Shown: piece by piece, positions 10,270 to 58,765 of the stretch
Numbering within the stretch: position 1 is the first letter of the stretch
Layout of the letters: the number at the start of each line of letters is the position of its first letter
Source: Cordylochernes scorpioides
Taxonomy: Eukaryota; Arthropoda; Arachnida; Pseudoscorpiones; Chernetidae
Assembly: GCA_030710605.1 (NCBI GenBank)
Contig: CP092863.1
Span: 64,417,572 to 64,481,571 of the forward strand
Direction: 5' to 3'
Length of the DNA: 64,000 nt
Translations under genes and position numbers: made by a program
Notes under the pieces: model-generated
Databases searched by the model: none
What the model was told of the DNA's origin: nothing
What the model saw: only the letters and a program-made list of their open reading frames with translations

Positions 10270-10425
10270 AAGTATTAGAAAGAACCATGTGATAAGGCAC
10301 AATTTGGATTATAGATTATAAACACAAGGTAATAAGACCAAATGTCACACACTATATATTTATTTGGATTTGTTCTTATTACCTTCAATTGTAAAGTTGC
10401 CCATGAAACCATCATCTTTCTCAAA
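10270..10425. repeat. HHR-A family remnant at the edge of a minisatellite
   Basis: GGCACAATTTGGATTATAGA and AACACAAGGTAATAAGACC are the 3' end words of the HHR-A family (antisense), followed by a sense copy starting ATGTCACACACTAT. The hammerhead core itself is lost here. 10083-10270 holds nothing I recognise. Confidence 0.5.
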
Positions 10426-11553
10426 CTCAATACTGTGAGCTTTCACTGCAGTCTTATACTGAGGTCTTGGTGTGATAAACATAGTCAGGGTCATATTCCT
10501 GTGTCCCAATGTGAGTGTGCCATGATACTTCTGTGCAAGTTTTACATGGACTGCCATTGTAAAGATGCCCATGCCACCATCAGCTTTGTCCTACTCAATA
10601 CTGTGAACTTTCACTGCAGTCTTATACTGAGGTCTTGGTGTGATAAACATAGTCAGGGTCATATTCCTGTGTCCCAATGTGAGTGTGCCATGATACTTCT
10701 GTGCAATTTTTACATGGACTGCCATTGTAAAGTTGCCCATGCCACCATCAGCTTTGTCCTACTCAATACTGTGAACTTTCACTGCAGTCTTATACTGAGG
10801 TTTTGGTGTGATAAACATGGTCAGGGTCATATTCCTGTGTCCCAATGTGAGTGTGCCATGATACTTCTGTGCAATTTTTACATGGACTGCAATTGTAAAG
10901 TTGCCCATGCCACCATCAGCTTTGTCCTACTCAATACTGTGAACTTTCACTGGAGTATTATACTGAGGTTTTGGTGTAATAAACATGGTCAGGGTCATAT
11001 TCCTATCTCACAATGTTACTGTGCCATGATACTTCTGTGCAATTTTTACATGGACTGCAATTGTAAAGTTGCCCATGCCACCATCAGCTTTGTCCTACTC
11101 AATACTGTGAACTTTCACTGCAGTCTTATACTGAGGTTTTGGTGTGATAAACATGGTCAGGGTCATATTCCTGTGTCCCAATGTGAGTGTGCCATGATAC
11201 TTCTGTGCAATTTTTACATGGACTGCCATTGTAAAGTTGCCCATGCCACCATCAGCTTTGTCCTACTCAATACTGTGAACTTTCACTGCAGTCTTATACT
11301 GAGGTTTTGGTGTGATAAACATGGTCAGGGTCATATTCCTGTGTCCCAATGTGAGTGTGCCATGATACTTCTGTGCAATTTTTACATGGACTGCAATTGT
11401 AAAGTTGCCCATGCCACCATCAGCTTTGTCCTACTCAATACTGTGAACTTTCACTGGAGTATTATACTGAGGTTTTGGTGTAATAAACATGGTCAGGGTC
11501 ATATTCCTATCTCACAATGTTACTGTGCCATGATACTTCTGTGCAATTTTTAA
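10426..11553 (+). repeat. 168-bp minisatellite, about 6.7 copies, intronic
   Basis: Units begin at 10426, 10594, 10762, 10930, 11098, 11266 and 11434 (CTCAATACTGTGAAC), spacing exactly 168 bp. Units 3-4 match units 6-7, so there is a 504-bp higher-order step. As 168 is divisible by three and the unit has no stop, one frame is open for 403 codons (10342-11553), giving a Cys-rich 56-residue repeat. It lies ~30 bp before exon b, with no splice or start signal of its own, so I treat it as non-coding. Confidence 0.9.
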
Positions 11554-11583
11554 CATGTGAATCTTCTCTTTGTCCCATTCCAG

Positions 11584-20165: not shown

Positions 20166-20177
20166 TGTGCTTTATCA

Positions 20178-21436
20178 TCTTTCAGAGTTATTGTCTGAAT
20201 CCCGATATACATGCTAAAAGGTACAACTTAGTTTTGTCCATGAGTGTGTCTTCAATAAAGGTCACTGTAATATCTTTCAGATTTATTGTCTGAATCCTGA
20301 TATACATGCTAAAAGGTACAACTTCCTTTAGTCATGTCCATGAGTGTGTCTTCAATAAAAGTCACTGTAATATCTTTCAGATTTATTGTCTGAATCCCGT
20401 TATACATGCTAAAAGGTACAACTTCCTTAAGTTATGTCCATGAGTGTGTCTTCAATAAAGGTCACTAATATCTTTCAGAGTTATTGTCTGAATCCCGATA
20501 TACATGCTAAAAGGTACAACTTCCTTAAGTTTTGTCCATGAGTGTGTCTTCAATAAAGGTCACTGTAATATCTTTCAGAGTTATTGTCTGAATCCCGATA
20601 TACATGCTAAAAGGTACAACTTCCTTAAGTTTTGTCCATGAGTGTAACTTCAATAAAGGTCACCGTAATATCTTTCAGAGTTATTGTTTGAATCCCGATA
20701 TACATGCTAAAAGGTACAACTTCCTTAAGTTTTGTCCATGAGTGTAACTTCAATAAAGGTCACCGTAATATATTTCAGAGTTATTGTCTGAATCCCGAGA
20801 AAAATGCTAAAAGGTACAACTTCCTTAAGTTTTGTCCATGAGTGTAACTTCAATAAAGGTCACTGTAATATCTTTCAGAGTTAATGTCTGAATCCCGATA
20901 TACATGCTAAAAGGTACAACTTCCTTAAGTTTTGTCCATGAGTGTAACTTCAATAAATATCACTGTAATATCTTTCAGAGTTATTGTCTGAATCCCGATA
21001 TACATGCTAAAAGGTACAACTTCCTTAAGTTTTGTCCATGAGTGTAACTTCAATAAAGGTCACCGTAATATCTTTCAGAGTTATTGTTTGAATACCGATA
21101 TACATGCTAAAAGGTACAACTTCCTTAATTTTTTTCCATGAGTGTAACTTCAATAAAGGTCACCGTAATATATTTCAGAGTTATTGTCTGAATCCCGAGA
21201 AAAATGCTAAAAGGTACAACTTCCTTAAGTTTTGTCCATGAGTGTAACTTCAATAAAGGTCACTGTAATATCTTTCAGAGTTATTGTCTGAATCCCGATA
21301 TACATGCTAAAAGGTACAACTTCCTTAAGTTTTGTCCATGAGTGTGTCTTCAATAAAGGTCACTGTAATATCTTTCAGAGTTATTGTCTGAATCCCGATA
21401 TACATGCTAAAAGATACAACTTCCTTAAGTTTTGAG
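20178..21436 (+). repeat. 100-bp tandem satellite, about 12.5 monomers
   Basis: The word TTCCTTAAG recurs at 20423, 20521, 20621, 20721 and every 100 bp to 21421. The monomer contains CTTCAATAAAGGTCACTGTA, ATCTTTCAGAGTTATTGTCT and GCTAAAAGGTACAAC. Early units are more diverged. It ends ~90 bp before exon e. Single monomer fragments also occur at 5806, 7104, 9790 and 51975. Confidence 0.95.
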
Positions 21437-28475: not shown

Positions 28476-29484
28476 ATCCAAATTATGCAGTATCATGTTT
28501 TTAATTAGGGAAGTATTGTACAACTGTTGTGGAATTGAATATCACTTTTGTAATAAGTCAAACTATTACAAACTCCTGGCCTCTAACATGAGCATTCTAG
28601 ATGGCATAGTGCCATCTAGTGGAACAAAGATCAACTAAACGTGGATTTAATTTGTTCTATGATATTTGGCCAACCTAACCAGACTTTACCTCTACACCAA
28701 AATTTTTGGTCCTAGAGGCTTGACATCAAGAAATGAGTATTTTTCAGGAAGCCCCTTGGTAGTAAGCAACAGCTTTTACTGTAAGTACACCACGTGTCTA
28801 CACAGGTGAAAAGCAGTTCAAATTTTTCACTTACAAATGTGCCAGAGATCTCCTTTGCCCAAAATGTAGAGCAAAGTATTTCGAATTGGAACAAACGACA
28901 TACAGTAAAACTCTAAGTGTGTTAAAATAAAAATAATCCACGGAAGCAAGCAAGGAAGGCTTCTTGAAAATAGTTCAGCTTGCTTCACCAAAAATGTTGT
29001 TTACAAAGAAATTTATTCATTGTAAGTTCACCTCTTTTAAAGTAAAAATGTTAATTAAAAAAAATATCAATAAAATGACCCGAAAGGTAAAATGTTGCAA
29101 CGCTCGGAAGGGGATCGATCCCTGACGACCATGAATGTTATTTTACCTCGAACGCTTCCGATTACATATTATTAAGTATCAAAAAGGAATGTGAGAAATA
29201 AAATTAGGAATCCACCTGCTCTAGCCGATCCCGTCCTTGGACGGGCCTTTATACTAGTTATGTTATATATGAACAATAAATTTGTGTAAGCTTACTATTA
29301 TATTAAGATTATTTTGTTGAGATAAGAGATTAATTGCTGGTTCTTTTGAGTACATGAGTACTTAATGGTATTGTTTGAAGTCTTATCATTCCCTGGATGA
29401 AATTCTTTTATCTCAAATGACATTAGGAACTTGTTAAGAAAAGAAAAGAGAGCTTTAAAGAAACTAATTTTAAATGTTGGGGAG

Positions 29485-37226: not shown

Positions 37227-38548
37227 CAAGGTGCGTTCATTAATTTCCAGGACTGGTTAAAAAATAAAATAAATAAAAAAGCTAAAGAAATTTTTTTATA
37301 CAGAGTTAAATATTGGACATTCGACCACACCTGACTGAAAGCACGAGTCTCGTGGCGCACGCGCCGATCTAAAAATAGAACAAAACAACTTCCTTGTAAG
37401 GTTCGCATTTCTAATTTTAAAATGGCCATTTTCGAAGAGCAGAGAATCTGCATTAAGTTTTGTTTTAAATTGAAAAAAAAAAGTGCTACTGAGACGTATG
37501 GATTGATTAAAGAAGCTTTTGGCGATGCAGCTTTATCCCGTTCAAGAACTTTTGAATGGTTTTCACGCTTCCTAAAAGGTCGGGAAAAGGTAAACGATGA
37601 TCAGCATACTGGGCGTCGAAGATCATTACGTTGCGAGGAAAACAAGCTCAAAATAAAGGAATTAATTAAATCTAACAGAAGAATTTCTATTAAAGACTTA
37701 TCTTCAGAGACTGGACTATCTGTAGGACTGTGTCATCAAATAGTAACAAAAGATTTGGACATGATCCGGACGTCTTCAAAATTTGTTCCCCGGATTCTAA
37801 CAGAGGAACAAAAGGAGGTTAGAATGGATATCTGCAAAAACATGGTTGAAATGACTCGGACCGATCCAGAATGGATGCAAAAAATCATTACCGGGGATGA
37901 GACATGGGTGTATCAGTATGACCCGGAAACCAAACGTCAACCCAGCCAATGGATTGAAAGAGGGGAACCGAAACCCAAAAAGGCAAGATTTACAAAATCC
38001 AAAGTCAAGACATTGCTTGTTACATTTTTTTATATTAATGGTTTGGTTCACCATGAATTTATTCCTTTCGGACGTACAATTAATCAAGAGGTTTATTTGG
38101 GGATAATGAGGCGCTTAAGGGAGGCAGTGCGCCTTAAAAGACCTGAAAGATGGCAAAACAATGACTGGATACTTCACGTCGATAATGCGCGGCCGCACAC
38201 CCATGTTGTTTTGCAGTTCTTGGCCAAGCATTCAACCATACAGATCCCTCATCCACCCTATTCCCCCGACTTAGCCCCCAATGACTTTTTCCTCTATCCT
38301 AAATTGAAAATGAAGTTAAAAGGAAGGAAATTTGACAACGTTGATATGATACAAGCTGAATCGAAGGCAACCTTGAGGAACCTCTCAAAAAGTGATTTTA
38401 TCTCCTGCTTCGACAATTGGAAAAAAAAGATGGAACAGGTGTATTGAGGCAGGAGGGACATATTTTGAAAAATATTAAATTAGTTTTTTTTATTTGTTTT
38501 ATTTTTCAAAGATACAGAGCAGTCCTGGAAATTAATGAACGCACCTTG
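37227..38548 (+). mobile_element. mariner element 1, complete, 1.32 kb
   Basis: Perfect TIRs of at least 28 bp, starting CAAGGTGCGTTCATTAATTT and ending with its complement, flanked by TA (37225-37226, 38549-38550). One uninterrupted transposase. By structure a recently active copy. Confidence 0.93.
37422..38447 (+). CDS. mariner transposase, 341 aa, intact frame
   Basis: Cuts and rejoins the element at TA targets in the nucleus. N-terminal paired-like HTH region (residues ~1-115; RICIKFCFKLKKKSATETYG, then RRISIKDLSSETGLSVG), then a DDE/D catalytic domain: GDETW with D159, HVDNARPH with D254, PPYSPDLAPNDFF with D288. By my count 33 residues separate the last two Asp, against 34 in classic mariners. 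N-terminal wording matches the GVQW3/SETMAR-like mariners common in arthropods. ATG at 37422 is ~195 bp inside the left TIR. No stop or frameshift; full length for the family. Confidence 0.92.
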   Translation: MAIFEEQRICIKFCFKLKKKSATETYGLIKEAFGDAALSRSRTFEWFSRFLKGREKVNDDQHTGRRRSLRCEENKLKIKELIKSNRRISIKDLSSETGLSVGLCHQIVTKDLDMIRTSSKFVPRILTEEQKEVRMDICKNMVEMTRTDPEWMQKIITGDETWVYQYDPETKRQPSQWIERGEPKPKKARFTKSKVKTLLVTFFYINGLVHHEFIPFGRTINQEVYLGIMRRLREAVRLKRPERWQNNDWILHVDNARPHTHVVLQFLAKHSTIQIPHPPYSPDLAPNDFFLYPKLKMKLKGRKFDNVDMIQAESKATLRNLSKSDFISCFDNWKKKMEQVY

Positions 38549-45042: not shown

Positions 45043-45462
45043 TTTATATATTCATATATGTTGTACATATATTAATTAATTGTTACCACAGAGTGTGTAT
45101 AAGCTCACAGGTAAATAGGCGCTAACCGAAAGAAAAAAAAATCCTTTGTTAAATATTAGTTTCCCTTTTATATTTTGTTCTCTCTGTTGTAAATCAATAA
45201 ATATAATGTTTCATTAATAATTCTTGGAATCATTTTCATTAAAAATTCTAAGCAAAGTCAACAATCTAAAACAATAATCAGTCCATTTCTCTCTATTTAC
45301 CAAGTTCATCAACCTTTTCATATTTGATTCTTTAAAATGTTCAATTAAGTTCAAATTATTTCATTGATCCTTCGTGCACAATATCGCGTCATAGTTACTT
45401 AAAATATAATGTGATATGAAAAAACAATAGAAAAAAAATAATAAAAGGGTCAGGTGTTGATA

Positions 45463-45814
45463 TTAAAAATAAATAAAGCATATCCTGACCAGGAGGAGTA
45501 CATGTGCTTTTTAGATGGCAGAGTACTATCTAGTGAAACAGAAATCAACTAAACATTGATTTAACCTGTTCCCTGATATTTGGTCAACCCAATTTCTTGA
45601 TAAATCAAGAAAAGTATAGCTTGTCCCACGCTGACGAGTGCCAACAGCGCGAAACGCGTTCGTGGATGGCTTTTCTTGATTTATCAAGTTTGGGTTGGCC
45701 AAATATCAGGGAACAGGTTAAATCAATGCTCAGTTGATTTCTGTTCCATTAGATGGCGCTCTGCCATCTAAAAAGCACACGTGCTCCTCTGGTCAGGATA
45801 TACTTTATTTTTAA
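45463..45814. repeat. Foldback element with hammerhead at its tip (HHR-C family)
   Basis: Arms of ~150 nt: AAGCATATCCTGACCAG/CTGGTCAGGATATACTT, TTTTTAGATGGCAGAG with its partner, CTTGATAAATCAAGAAA/TTTCTTGATTTATCAAG. The arms are imperfect, and the 40-nt hammerhead is in the apical loop, so they extend its helix I. Confidence 0.85.
45626..45665 (+). ncRNA. Hammerhead ribozyme, type I, complete by inspection
   Basis: Self-cleaving RNA motif. Helix I CCACG (45626-45630) with CGTGG (45661-45665), 5 bp. Core CTGACGA (45631-45637) fits CUGANGA. Helix II GTGC (45638-45641)/GCGC (45647-45650) around loop CAACA, 4 bp including one G-U. GAAA (45651-45654). Helix III is the palindrome ACGCGT (45654-45659): A-U and C-G over two bases, or six pairs in a dimer. 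Position 17 is T45660, so cleavage is predicted after 45660 at GUU, which satisfies NUH. All invariant residues are present. Short helix III is typical of hammerheads in Penelope-like elements. Confidence 0.75.
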
Positions 45815-45949
45815 TAGTGCGATATATTTTGATAATTTTAATAATACTGGCGCTTTGTTTCGCAGATTCTTCTGACAACCAAAATTTAATGCAATTTATT
45901 ACAATCCAAAATAAGCCTTATTTTTAAAATATACATATATTATGGATTG

Positions 45950-46120
45950 TGTCGTATTTTATTTTTCAATACTCTGTGTGAAAGCTAGATTTGGAATAGG
46001 AACTAACCGGGAGGTTTTGGTTTTTTCCGTGTTTGTTTTTGTTTTCTTCTTGTCTTGCTAAATGCAATAAATAATTCTTTTGTTGCTTTAAAGAGAGTTG
46101 TAATTATTTAAAATACTACA
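45950..46120 (+). repeat. Copia 5' LTR (171 bp)
   Basis: TGTCGTATTTTATTTTTC to AAATACTACA; AATAAATAATTC may be the poly(A) signal. Confidence 0.95.
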
Positions 46121-46389
46121 ATTTATGGTAGCAGAGCTTGGTTCAATTTAAAACTTGAGAAATAGCGAAAATATTTTATCAGAAGTTTGATACGTTTATT
46201 CTAATCGGTAAACAAAGATCTCTTCTGCATCAAGGTATGTAAATTTTGAAATATGTTTCAATAGAATTTAAATTATATTGATAAAAGAAAGTTTTAAATA
46301 GGAGGATTGAAAAAAAAAACATTTTTGAATTATAAACTACCTTTAAACTATATTGTTTAATTTTTAAAAAGTTGAAAAACAAGGCTAAA

Positions 46390-47942
46390 ATGGATTGCAA
46401 TTTTTCGCCAACGACAAAAATTGAACCTTTAACAGGAACAAATTATCCGATTTGGGCTTTAAAAGTCGGAGCACTTTTACGTGGAAAGAAATTATTTAAA
46501 TGCGTAATTTCGGATCCCGAGCCTGATATAAAAGATGAAGTCGCTTGGCAAATATGGAGTGAAAAGAATGACGAAGCCTTTGGAATTATAGTTACAACTC
46601 TATCAGATGAACAAGCAGGGATGTTTCTAGATGAAACTAAAGCAAAGAAAGTATGGGATGAATAAAAGAAAATCTACACGGGCAACCTAGAAGATAAGAT
46701 CATTGATATTGGACTTGAACTTAAGAATATCAAGATGAAAAATAATGAATCCATAAACGAATATATGGCTAGAGCCAAAAATATTGCCTCTCAAAGTTCT
46801 TCACTCGGACACCAAATATCCCAAAGAGAACTAGCGTTTCATATTGTGCGAGGTATCCATCCAAGATTGGAAAATATCGCTGTTGTACTGAGAACTAGAA
46901 GAGAATTAACTCTTGATGAAATTCGGCAGTCACTTAGAGAGGAAGAGAATCGAATGAATTCTAAGATGAATGGGAGTCATTCTGATGAAATTTAACAGGC
47001 TTACGGAAGTAAAAACAGAAGAAATCACTATCAACAGAATCGACAAAAGGAGTGTTTTGTTTGCCATAAAAAATGAAATTTAGCTAAAGATTGCTGGTTC
47101 AAAAATAAGCGAACTCAAGAACAACATGGGAGAAGAAATGCAAATTCAAATACGAACTATAACAAACAAAATTTCAGAAATAATGCGAATACCGTCTCAA
47201 GCGAGCCTGCGGAACAAACTTTCAATACCAGCACAGATCGAGTTTTTGAAAACTCCTCAAATAATTATAGTCAGATGCAAACCTGGTGTCTTGACTCAGG
47301 GTGTACTACGCACTTATCTCCACACTTGGACTGGATGGAAAATGTAATGCCTTATGAAAGTGAGATAAATTTGGCAGAAGAAGGTAAAGTTACACATGCT
47401 ACAGCTAAAGGTGATATCAAGGTTTCTACTTGTACCGAAAACGGAATTGAGAATGTTCAAATTAAAGGAGTTCTGCATGTACCTAACTTAAGGTCTAATC
47501 TTTTATCAATATACGAATTAACTAACAAAGGAAATACTGTAATTTTCAATAGAGATGGAGCAAAGATTTACAATGAACAGGATGATTTAATTGCAGAGGC
47601 TCAAATCCAGGATAGGATGTATGTAATGGAAACAAGGTCCAGAGATGAATACTCGGAAAAGACGGAGAATGTCATGACCACAAAAGATGATTTCTCTAAT
47701 GACAATATCAGCTTGTGACATAGAAGACTGAATCATTTGAACGAAGCGTACATGAAAGAGATAATTCAACGGAATGTGGTATTGGGGTTTAATGTTAAAT
47801 TTAAGAACTTGCCAGAATGTGAAGCTTGTATAATGGGAAAATTGACTCGACAACCTTACCATCCCGTTACCACCAACTGTACAACCAAACCCCTTGAATT
47901 GGTGCATATGGATTTGTGTGGTCCAATGCATACCAATCTCTA
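46390..47942 (+). pseudogene. Copia gag, protease and integrase N-terminus, with stops
   Basis: One frame from ATG 46390 with stops at 46663, 46993, 47074 and 47716. Gag reads KIEPLTGTNYPIWALKVGAL (UBN2-like). The zinc knuckle CFVCHKK-stop-NLAKDC has lost its Gly to TGA and has Asn where His is usual. Protease: WCLDSGCTTHLSP with the catalytic Asp. Integrase zinc region: HRRLNHLN and CEACIMGK. A frameshift near 47940 moves the rest to another frame. Confidence 0.92.
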
Positions 47943-50273
47943 GGTGGATCAAAATACTTTTTTGTTCTGGTTGATGACTTCAGCCGAAGAACCTTTATCT
48001 ACTTTCTGAAAAACAAAGATGAAACTTTGGGGAAGTTTGAAGAATTTAAGGCAAGAGTGGAAAATGAGCTAAACCTGAAAATAAAGGATGTGCGAACTGA
48101 TAATGGCACAGAGTTCACTAATCACAGATTCAAGAATTTCTTAATTAAAAATGGAATACACCACCAACTCTCCACCACCTACTCGCCACAAAGTAACGGA
48201 GTTGCGAAGAGAGTAAACCGAACCCTAATTGAAACAGCAAGGACATTATTGTTTGATTCAGGATTACCCATGACTTTCTGGGCGGAGGCAGTCGCTACTG
48301 CATCATATGTCAAAAATTGTATTCCACATAGGTCAATCAAGCTTGATACACCAATGGAGAAATGGAAAGGAAGAAAACCCTCCATTCGACATTTAAGAAT
48401 ATTCGGTTGTTTGGCGTTTTGGCCCATTACACAACAACATAGAAGTAAATTTATGCCTAAGAGTCGAAAAGGTATTTTTGTAGGCTATTCTCTGAAAAGA
48501 AAGGCTTATCGAGTGTATGACATAATCACTAAGAAAATAGAAGAAGTAAGATCAGTAAAATTTGTCGAAAATGAGAAAGGAATCGATTATGCAAAAAATC
48601 TTCAAGAAGACACAAATTACGACCATTTTGCATATAAAAAGGAAGAGGAAAATGATAATGAAATCGACCTTCGGACGCGTCCAGAAACCTCAGAACTAAA
48701 TGAAGAAACGATTCCCACGCTGGACGAACCTAACGAAGAAAGAATTGTAAGGTCAGGTTGCAAAAAGGGAGATACTCAAAAAGTTTTAGAGGAAAAACAC
48801 AGAGCAAAACTGAGAGAAGAAGAAATGAAATTGCTTGAACAAGGCGTTCGACGTTCGCAAAGAATAAAAGAAAGAAATAATGTGAATTTTATATTAGAAC
48901 CAGAAGAACGTATTCCCGAAAATTATCAGGAGGCGATTAACTGCGAGAATAAATATGAATGGCTCGAAGCAATGAAAGAAGAACTTTACTCTATTAACAA
49001 GCATAAGGTATGGACTCTCGTTCAAAGAGAAAAGAATATGAAGACCATAAACTGCAAATGGATCTTTAGCATAAAGAGTACGCCTGGTGAGGGTGTTTAT
49101 AGAAGAAAAGATAGATTAGTTGCTATTGGTTGTAATCAAAAATATGGCGTAGAATATGAGGAATCTTTTTCACCAGTGATCAGAAAAGAAAGTCTTCGTG
49201 CAATTGTAGCCCTAGCAGCTCAGTTGAATTTGGTTATAACATCATATGATGTGAAGACCGCCTACCTTTACGGAGAATTGAAGGAAACTATTTTTATGAA
49301 ACAGCCGGAAGGATTTGTTGAAAAAGGTGAAGAAGACAAAGTTTGCAAATTGTTAAAAAGTATATATGGACTTCCACAATCGGGACATTGTTGGAATAAA
49401 AAGATCACACACAACGAGATACTGATACAACTGGGAATGGAAAGATCGCAATATGATCCATGTGTGTACACTTTTAGAAAAGGAAAGGAATATGGAATAT
49501 TGGGTTTATACGTGGATGATCTAATAATAGCCGGAACGGATAAAACCTTTAATGAAAAACTAGCATCAGAGATAGGAAGATTTGTTACTTTAAAAGAAAA
49601 AGGGGAGAATGAACCTTTCATTGGTATAGAGATAAGGAAAACAGAATACGGTTTTGATCTATCACAAGCCCATTATATCGATAAAATCTTGAAGAAATTT
49701 GCACTCGAAGAATGTAACATTGTACAAACTCCGGGAGATCGAGACCAAAGTTTTGATGAATGTCAAGACTCCAAACCAGTAGACAGGACATTGTATCAAG
49801 AGATGATCGGATCCCTGATGTATTTGGCAACCGGAACTCGTCCAGATATTTATTTTAATGTGAGCAATTTATCCCGTTTTTGCAATGATGCAAGAGAAGT
49901 ACATTTAACAGGAGTTAAGAGAATATATAGATATCTGAAGGGCACCAGAGATAAAATGTTAAGATACAAGCCATCAGAAAATAGCATTCTTGTCAGCACA
50001 GATGCAAGCTGGTGTTCAACAAGTGACGCAAAGTCCTATTCCGGATACACAGTTAAACTGGGAAACAACCTGATCAGTTGGAGAAGCAAGAAACAAAGTT
50101 TGGTGGCTCTGTCAACATGCGAAGCCGAACTGATTTCGATATGCGAAGGGATCTGCGAAGTAAAATGGATTAAAGGACTTTTAGAAGAACTATGTAAGGA
50201 TATGCGAACTTTCCTACAACGCTTAAAACAGATAGTCAATCTGCTATCAAGTGGATTAAATCTGAAAAAATAA
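47916..50273 (+). pseudogene. Copia pol: integrase core, RT, RNase H
   Basis: 785-codon open frame. Integrase: VDDFSRRTFIYF (D), VRTDNGTEF (D), then SNGVAKRVNRTLIE where the catalytic Glu is Lys. RT: NCKWIFSIK, YDVKTAYLYGEL with an Asp, PQSGHCWNKK, GLYVDDLIIAG (YVDD). RNase H: VSTDASW, SLVALSTCEAELIS. A frameshift near 50205 removes the last ~80 codons, which continue in another frame to TGA at 50444. Integration would fail through E to K alone. Confidence 0.93.
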
Positions 50274-50472
50274 CTTTCCGGACGAAACATATAAACCGAA
50301 AATTGTATTTTATAAAAGATGCTGTGGAAGAAGGAACAATCGACCTTGAATTTGTTAGGAGTGACGAAATGGAAGCGGACTTATTAACAAAGAGTCTTCC
50401 CAAGGAGAAACTTAAAAACTGCATAAACTCTCTCGGACTTGTTTGATAGAAGCTTCCACACAGGGGAGGGAT

Positions 50473-50644
50473 TGTCGTATTTTATTTTTGAATACTCTGT
50501 GTGAAAGCTAGATTTGGAATAGGAACTAACCGGGAGGTTTTGGTTTTTTTCCGTGTTTGTTTTTGTTTTCTTCTTGTCTTGCTAAATGCAATAAATAATT
50601 CTTTTGTTGCTTTAAAGAGAGTTGTAATTATTTAAAATACTAAA
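50473..50644 (+). repeat. Copia 3' LTR (172 bp)
   Basis: Differs from the 5' LTR by about three changes (C/G near base 22, one T in a T run, terminal ACA to AAA). 50650-51157 is AT-rich with nothing recognised. Confidence 0.95.
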
Positions 50645-56749: not shown

Positions 56750-57190
56750 ATTAAGAAAAAGGCCATCTCCTGATCATGCAACTAAAAGTCACTGATGGTT
56801 GGCTCCATGTGTAGGAATAAATACTAACTAAGCGTTGACTTTTAATTATCCAGAATTGACCAAATACCCATTCTTGATTAATCAAGAAAGGCTAACCATG
56901 TATGTATTTAAGGCTGTTGGCCCTCATCAACGTGGTGAAAGCCGTACCTCAATGACCAAAAAGCTGGTAGACATCCTGAAAATTTCATGATGAGGGTCAA
57001 CAGCCCGAAATGTGTATATGGTTAATTTTTCTTGATTAATCATGAATGGGTACTTGGTCAATTCGGGAATAATTAAAAATCAACGATTAGTTGATATTTA
57101 TTCCTACAGATGGAACAAGACGTCAACAACTTTTAGTTTCACAATCAGGAAATGCCTATTTCTTAATTTATCTACCTGATCCCAGTACAA
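56750..57190. repeat. Foldback, HHR-C family, with a core in both halves
   Basis: Outer arms AAAAAGGCCATCTCCTGATC and GATTGTGAAA-side AGGAAATGCCTATTTCTTAA; inner CTTGATTAATCAAGAA and complement. Minus half (~56905-56942): TTGATGA, GGGC-type stem around CAACA, decayed GAAA. Plus half (56968-57010): ATGATGA, GGGTCAACAGCCC, GAAA, TGTGTATATGG. Confidence 0.65.
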
Positions 57191-58469: not shown

Positions 58470-58765
58470 GTGAAAAATGATATTGTACTGGGATAAGGTG
58501 CATTAATTAAGAAAAAGGCATCTCCTTATCGTGCAACTGAAATTTTCTGATAGCTTGCGCCATCTATCGGAATAAATATATTACACAACATATTAATATA
58601 AACGCGTCCATGGTTAGCTTTTCTTGATTAATCAAGAATGGGTATTTGGCTAATTCTGGAATTATTAAAAATCAACGAGAATAGTTGATATTTATTCAGA
58701 TAGATGGCGCAAGCCATCAGCAACTTTCAGATCACGATAAGGAGATGCCTTTTTCTTAATTGTTA
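58470..58765. repeat. Foldback, HHR-C family, one half lost
   Basis: AAAAAGGCATCTCCTTATCG and CGATAAGGAGATGCCTTTTT arms, GCGCCATCTATC and GATAGATGGCGC. Only AAACGCGTCCATGGTTAGC remains of the hammerhead. Confidence 0.65.

What the first reader, a model, noticed from the sequence alone, without database searches (positions are those of the whole stretch)
45626..45665. Complete hammerhead ribozyme at the tip of a foldback element
All invariant positions of a type I hammerhead are present: CTGACGA, GAAA, a 4-bp helix II, a 5-bp helix I (CCACG/CGTGG) and an NUH site (GUU, cut after 45660). Helix III is the palindrome ACGCGT, giving 2 pairs alone or 6 in a dimer. The ~150-nt arms of the foldback extend helix I, so a transcript of the element would present the ribozyme in a very stable stem.
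Basis: partly seen in the sequence, partly recalled or inferred. Interest (0 to 1): 0.85.

Follow-up and report, generated by a model that had tools for sequence, protein, structure and literature searches.

The report
Hammerhead retrozyme inserted head-to-head
The sequence is a real hammerhead ribozyme motif belonging to a roughly 350-base mobile RNA element (a retrozyme) present in very many copies in this genome, and the way its copies are inserted points to the helper enzyme, a Penelope-type retrotransposon, that probably moves such elements.

Summary
The hammerhead at 45626-45665 is real: its core is intact, and the family pattern has 25,108 genome-wide matches (up to 2 mismatches) against 0 reversed. 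The foldback is not the unit. The unit is a ~350-nt, 39-40% GC tandem repeat with one type I hammerhead, like animal non-LTR retrozymes; the foldback is two copies joined head-to-head, the junction leaving one ribozyme at the tip.

Of 40 sites chosen for an exact hammerhead, 18 are head-to-head, 1 complex, 21 one-directional, none tail-to-tail (arms over 84% identical). Without that cut six tail-to-tail contacts appear, five between copies of clearly different identity. Outer ends fall at two fixed positions ~45-50 nt apart, one of each in 15 of 16 assigned head-to-head sites. Flanks are TA-rich. Penelope-like elements here carry hammerheads in 4 of 12 fetched loci, pair head-to-head (11 of 11 close pairs listed) and show a one-sided tail (3 of 3 read). 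A published Penelope enzyme extends both DNA strands from two internal RNA sites. Complete units in opposite arms of two insertions are identical, suggesting one circular template.

Penelope mobilisation and circular templates are inferred; cleavage is untested; Rfam thresholds are not met.

The parts
45626..45665 (+). type I hammerhead core; predicted cut between 45660 and 45661
   Evidence: sequence; family pattern 25,108 genome-wide; pair counts
45654..45659 (+). palindrome ACGCGT: helix III, one pair plus CGCG loop alone, six pairs in a dimer
   Evidence: sequence; same 6-mer in 32 of 40 motif copies
45618..45671 (+). possible distal helix I: AGCT 45618-45621 with GGCT 45668-45671 (AGCC/GGCT in family), beyond a small internal loop
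   Evidence: 73% of cells paired, 3 of 4 pairs with both-side changes; the least well paired of the four helices
45416..45614 (-). antisense arm: retrozyme unit from outer end s2 (unit ~205) to about unit +10
   Evidence: blastn to the 351- and 346-nt units
45615..45815 (+). sense arm: unit from ~300 through the hammerhead to outer end s1 (unit ~156)
   Evidence: aligned to 45810-45811; last bases to 45815 read by eye
45411..45417 (.). left half of probable target-site duplication, GTGATAT
   Evidence: read by eye; the duplicate locus L002 reads GTGCGATAT
45817..45825 (.). right half of probable target-site duplication, GTGCGATAT
   Evidence: read by eye; L002 reads GTGCAATAT
56757..57161 (.). 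diverged related foldback with degenerate hammerhead remnants in both arms, on opposite strands (by eye)
58505..58761 (.). second diverged related foldback; keeps the 3' part of a hammerhead with a GTC site (by eye)
28586..28678 (.). fragment of one arm, 81-82% identical

Best explanation
A non-autonomous animal-type (non-LTR) retrozyme. Tandem ~350-nt units are transcribed; each type I hammerhead cuts, probably mainly as a dimer or with protein help because helix III is one pair and the site is GUU; monomers become circles. A Penelope-like RT-endonuclease binds this RNA, opens both strands of TA-rich DNA and primes copying from the DNA ends at two internal RNA sites (s1, unit 149-160; s2, unit 196-208). 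The two cDNAs run around the template, sometimes several times, and join head-to-head. At 45626 the join fell just upstream of the hammerhead, leaving one ribozyme at the tip of a foldback. Shown: motif, family, tandem unit, head-to-head geometry, two fixed outer ends, identical complete units in opposite arms of two insertions, TA-rich flanks, co-resident Penelope elements with minimal hammerheads and one-sided tails. Inferred: transcription, cleavage, circularisation, Penelope as the helper, circular template.
For: 25,108 motif matches against 0 reversed. A ~350-nt tandem unit with one hammerhead, GC 0.39-0.40. Both-side pair changes 8 cells against 2.3 shuffled, 0 of 500 as high. Among 40 sites: 18 head-to-head, none tail-to-tail among arms over 84% identical, 15 of 16 fully assigned pairs s1 plus s2. 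With no identity cut: 24 distinct head-to-head contacts, arms within 5 points of identity except L035, against 6 tail-to-tail contacts, five of them 7-23 points apart, as expected of separate insertions. Arms of one locus agree at 0.821 of variable-column comparisons against 0.524 permuted, 0 of 2000 as high; the window copy 17 of 18. Complete units are 100% identical across both arms in L008 (4 units) and the L042/L045 site (5 units); between insertions 86-97%. ATAT or TATA in 39 of 45 3'-end flanks against 18.5% of window 20-mers. GIY-YIG: the 11 pairs within 10 kb among 146 listed matches are all head-to-head. Penelope-type hammerheads in 4 of 12 fetched GIY-YIG loci; one-sided tail in 3 of 3 read. 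PMC11167929: two internal initiation sites, both strands cut and extended, AT-rich targets. PMC3846280: head-to-head pLTRs, one-sided tail, 8-10 bp duplications (passages). PMC7229834: retrozyme features and the Penelope proposal.
Against: No Rfam hammerhead above threshold. The isolated core folds otherwise: -18.9 against -4.1 kcal/mol for the hammerhead fold. Consensus GUU is a poor site (recalled). Target duplications are clear in only part: shared stretch >=10 in 9 of 40 against 5.1% of mismatched flanks, >=8 in 11 of 40 against 11.1% (stretches of A and T only counted at half length). Six tail-to-tail contacts exist if older neighbours are counted; L090 and L051 are nested. In the foldback-query set a left arm's own partner is strictly its best right-arm match in only 4 of 25 loci, with 4 ties; later private changes could explain this. 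Arms do not agree fully at variable columns (0.821; L035 1 of 23), and incomplete units of L008 differ slightly (antisense arm 99.0-99.8% to the unit). The 40 sites were chosen for an exact ribozyme in the first 15.3 Mb of one contig. No clear homology between retrozyme and Penelope ends (two weak places at 64-69% over 70 nt). No RNA data.
Confidence: 0.75

Rival explanations
1. A foldback or MITE-like DNA transposon that picked up a hammerhead and is copied as an inverted-repeat unit.
For: Long inverted arms with short flanking duplications in some copies.
Against: Arms do not separate into left and right lineages. Inner junctions range over the unit; one-directional and tandem forms occur. 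No transposase was searched for specifically.
Confidence: 0.07
2. Solo pseudo-LTR pairs of a Penelope-like element whose coding part was lost, rather than a separate retrozyme mobilised in trans.
For: Head-to-head pairs, one-sided tail and a hammerhead are Penelope pLTR features.
Against: No clear homology of the unit with the 12 fetched GIY-YIG loci (two weak places). Penelope hammerheads here differ in sequence and helices (by eye). Complete ~350-nt tandems without long reading frame. Only 12 of 146 listed GIY-YIG places were fetched.
Confidence: 0.15
3. A retrozyme mobilised by a LINE-type enzyme, the head-to-head form being twin priming.
For: LINE-like RT reading frames lie in the window (by eye); twin priming can invert segments (recalled).
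Against: Two fixed 3' ends paired in 15 of 16 assigned head-to-head sites; no poly(A) tail seen by eye at the printed ends. No LINE copy was compared.
Confidence: 0.1
4. A chance or decayed motif without ribozyme function.
For: No Rfam hit above threshold; another fold favoured in isolation.
Against: 25,108 matches against 0 reversed; pair changes above shuffles; identical motifs in tandem arrays.
Confidence: 0.04

Closest known systems
Non-LTR metazoan retrozymes (Cervera and de la Pena 2020, PMC7229834)
   Same: type I hammerhead, ~350-nt low-GC tandem unit, high copy number, co-resident Penelope elements with minimal hammerheads
   Different: many copies head-to-head with two fixed outer ends; GUU commonest site; the terms inverted, head-to-head and foldback do not occur in that paper's main text (supplements not seen)
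Amphibian satellite hammerheads (HHR_Amex1, as described in PMC7229834)
   Same: helix III of one pair with a palindromic tetraloop; expected to prefer dimers
   Different: unit sequence and insertion form not compared beyond the description
Penelope-like elements with pLTRs (PMC3846280, PMC11167929)
   Same: head-to-head pairs, one-sided tail, AT-rich targets, hammerhead
   Different: no RT or GIY-YIG frame in the unit; no clear sequence likeness; longer tail interval (~45-50 against ~33 nt in the three Penelope copies read here)

Membership tests
type I hammerhead ribozyme | CUGANGA, GAAA, NUH site and three helices with helix I open | tested here: met
   helix III is minimal
type I hammerhead ribozyme | pairing kept through sequence change | tested here: met
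   6 pairs with both-side changes; shuffle mean 2.1, 2 of 500 as high; related copies, so modest weight
type I hammerhead ribozyme | self-cleavage at the predicted site | not testable with these tools
   needs RNA work
type I hammerhead ribozyme | loop 1-loop 2 tertiary contact | not testable with these tools
   an internal loop in helix I and a CAACA loop exist; contact unknown
Rfam hammerhead families (detection score, not a defining feature) | score at or above the gathering threshold | tested here: not met
   best RF02275 17.5 bits against 52
non-LTR retrozyme | 170-400-nt tandem unit with one type I hammerhead, low GC | tested here: met
non-LTR retrozyme | non-coding, no LTR/PBS/PPT | tested here: inconclusive
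   longest stop-free run in the tripled units is 97 codons; PBS and PPT not searched
non-LTR retrozyme | target duplications longer than 4 bp when present | tested here: inconclusive
   7-13 bp by eye in several; matched-against-mismatched control weak at some cut-offs
non-LTR retrozyme | expressed as linear and circular RNA | not testable with these tools
   no transcriptome
Penelope-like element | RT plus GIY-YIG reading frame | tested here: not met
   unit carries no frame over 97 codons; so not filed as a Penelope element
Penelope-like element (insertion mode only) | head-to-head arms, tail on one end | tested here: met

The most novel reading that the evidence does not exclude
Animal retrozymes are hitchhikers of Penelope-like enzymes: both DNA ends at a TA-rich break prime on one circular retrozyme RNA at two fixed internal sites and copy round it, leaving palindromic head-to-head arrays of identical units. 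The genome thus records the circular RNA intermediate and names the helper.
Probability: 0.6. Interest if true: 0.75.

Novelty: new variant of a known kind. Interest (0 to 1): 0.55.

Why it matters
Which machinery moves animal retrozymes was left open between LINEs and Penelope-like elements, with Penelope called a strong candidate, in the 2020 paper, and between the same two in passages of a 2024 review. Paired end points at two fixed internal sites and head-to-head arms tie this family to the published Penelope biochemistry, and identical units in opposite arms suggest a single circular template. Both ideas become directly testable with a purified Penelope enzyme and this RNA. I found no description of head-to-head retrozyme insertions in the listings, which cover open-licence PubMed Central papers only; most of the papers listed were not opened.

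Tried and rejected
Clustering of the inner junction at the ribozyme cut site: in the 30 loci fetched with the foldback query, antisense arms end mostly near unit +6 to +20, which first suggested that copying ran off ribozyme-cleaved ends. In the sites fetched by ribozyme pattern the inner ends range over the unit, so the clustering came from the choice of query; the idea is dropped.

A single foldback lineage copied as a unit: rejected by the arm tree. 'Head-to-head only' held only under the 84% identity cut, made while checking this report, shows six tail-to-tail contacts without it (L051, L060, L077, L078, L089, L090). Palindromic flanks (L051, 98% over ~250 nt; short ones by eye in L020, L021, L081) may reflect nested insertion; not resolved. 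A probe of one arm alone gave 0 candidates, which shows nothing because very common words are skipped. A genome-wide search with Rfam RF00163 did not complete and was not repeated later.

Full report
Observation. The sequence at 45626-45665 has every position of a type I hammerhead core, with the predicted cut between 45660 and 45661. A loose core pattern occurs once in the window, with 0.04 expected from shuffles. Rfam does not call it at gathering thresholds in the window or in any of 8 loci scanned, Penelope loci included; a local scan gives RF02275 at 17.5 bits against 52. Folded alone the core prefers another structure, -18.9 against -4.1 kcal/mol. Helix III, ACGCGU, has one pair alone and six in a dimer.

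Not chance. The window's own genome is held: 2.62 Gb in 24 contigs, unnamed. The foldback query returned 80 matches in both strand orientations, from 5,950 candidates of which 40 were scored. A 35-base family pattern with up to 2 mismatches has 25,108 matches, and 0 when read backwards. A tolerant scan of the first 30 loci found 40 motif copies, none of them in L022; CUGANGA is intact in 30, GAAA in 36, and the site is GUU in 34. In 32 of the 40 (three duplicates and five repeated L008 copies dropped) the 15 pairs show changes on both sides in 8 cells against 2.3 in shuffles, 0 of 500 as high. The copies are related, so this is supporting, not decisive.

The unit. L008 shows what the element is: 351-nt head-to-tail repeats, one hammerhead each, in one array meeting a second array of opposite direction head-to-head. 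GC is 0.39-0.40 and the longest stop-free run in the tripled units is 97 codons. As a circle the L023 unit pairs 62% of its bases, and in both units helix I forms in the predicted fold. These are features given for non-LTR retrozymes in PMC7229834 (parts 1-4 of 6 read; term search).

The foldback. On the unit (+1 is the first base after the cut), the copy at 45416-45815 is an antisense arm from unit ~205 to about +10 joined to a sense arm from ~300 through the hammerhead to ~156. Probable target duplications GTGATAT and GTGCGATAT flank it; L002, 85 kb away with like flanks, has GTGCGATAT and GTGCAATAT (by eye). A tree of 70 arms does not separate left from right arms: 21 changes, shuffled mean 20.0, 386 of 500 as low. 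Mean identity of the two arms of one locus is 0.934 against 0.897 between loci (25 loci; duplicates L002, L006, L011, L015 dropped, and L029 for want of one arm). Against a close tie: a left arm's own partner is strictly its best right-arm match in only 4 of 25 loci, with 4 ties.

Sample chosen without regard to foldbacks. Forty sites were taken as consecutive exact pattern matches in the first 15.3 Mb of C1: 20 sites from loci L031-L060 after merging overlaps, and 20 more. They require an intact ribozyme, so they lean to young copies. A script joining arms over 84% identical and within 40 nt found 18 head-to-head, 1 complex (L090), 21 one-directional and 0 tail-to-tail. By eye two of the one-directional ones (L032, L086) have a short second arm. 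Without the identity cut there are 25 head-to-head rows (24 distinct, as L042 and L045 are one site; some loci have two) and 6 tail-to-tail rows, in L051, L060, L077, L078, L089 and L090. Head-to-head arms lie within 5 points of identity of each other, L035 excepted (9.3). Five of the six tail-to-tail pairs differ by 7-23 points and all six are 12-30 nt apart, so I read them as separate insertions of different age beside each other; L090 (3.3 points) stays unclear.

Outer ends. They fall at s1 (unit 149-160) or s2 (196-208). Of the 18 head-to-head sites 15 are s1 plus s2, 1 is s2 plus s2 and 2 have an unassigned end; L035, one of these, looks like s2 by eye, which would make 15 of 17. With even odds, 15 or more of 16 has a probability of about 0.0003. 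One-directional: 14 s1, 5 s2, 2 other. ATAT or TATA occurs in 39 of 45 flanks of 3' ends against 18.5% of window 20-mers (30 of the 40 sites entered; flanks cut at the alignment ends, so a few hold element bases). Target duplications are mixed: shared stretches of 10 or more in 9 of 40 against 5.1% of mismatched flanks, 8 or more in 11 against 11.1%, 7 or more in 18 against 15.7%.

One template. Complete units are 100% identical within L008 (4 units, both arms) and within the L042/L045 site (5 units, both arms), while units of different insertions are 86-97% identical. Incomplete units of L008 differ slightly. At 28 variable columns the two arms of one locus agree at 0.821 (646 of 787; 42 of 46 loci had both arms) against 0.524 permuted, 0 of 2000 as high; the 16 sites not fetched by foldback agree at 0.770 against 0.549 between sites. 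L035 agrees at 1 of 23 and is probably two insertions. A single circular RNA copied repeatedly from both DNA ends explains this; later array amplification or assembly error is not excluded.

Penelope-like elements. The GIY-YIG model gives 146 matches of 150 scored from 17,015 candidates; the 11 pairs closer than 10 kb among these 146 are all head-to-head. Of 12 loci fetched, an exact-core scan shows a Penelope-type hammerhead in 4 (L062, L064, L065, L071). Three of these (L062, L064, L071) have readable inverted ends, and each has a ~33-nt tail on one end only (by eye; L065 could not be assigned). PMC3846280 (passages) describes head-to-head pLTRs, a one-sided tail and 8-10 bp duplications. 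PMC11167929 (parts 1-3 of 4) reports that a Penelope protein cuts and extends both strands at AT-rich DNA and starts copying at two adjacent internal RNA sites, which define the tail. The retrozyme's paired s1/s2 ends and head-to-head arms have that form. I found no clear sequence homology between retrozyme and Penelope loci (two places at 64-69% over 70 nt), so the link is by form, not by sequence. Of PMC7761336, PMC6431247, PMC8490949 and PMC11722881 I saw passages only.

Verdict. A genuine type I hammerhead motif in a very abundant retrozyme family, of which the foldback is an insertion product. Penelope-type mobilisation from a circular template is the best reading, partly shown and partly inferred.

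Noticed in passing
45950-50642: copia-like LTR retrotransposon just right of the foldback (by eye); LTR stretches repeat near 45950-46118 and 50473-50642, 98% over the best 104 nt.
   Followed up: partly
L030 minus strand, sites 2833 and 2516; L015 minus strand, site 1274 (coordinates on the locus): other hammerhead-like families: one in a pair 317 nt apart with GUC and palindrome ACCATGGT, one with CTGATGA and helix II GGGC/GCCC.
   Followed up: no
L061, L063, L066-L070: a second GIY-YIG element type with the endonuclease motif ahead of RT-like sequence (order read by eye).
   Followed up: no
L051 flanks; L020, L021, L081 flanks: insertions lying at the centre of inverted flanking DNA, 98% over 250 nt in L051; the short ones were seen by eye.
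   Followed up: partly
37335-38447: long mariner-like transposase frame (by eye).
   Followed up: no
10386-11557 and 20177-21434: tandem repeats of 168-bp and 100-bp units; the 168-bp array is open as one long frame, 10336-11553.
   Followed up: no
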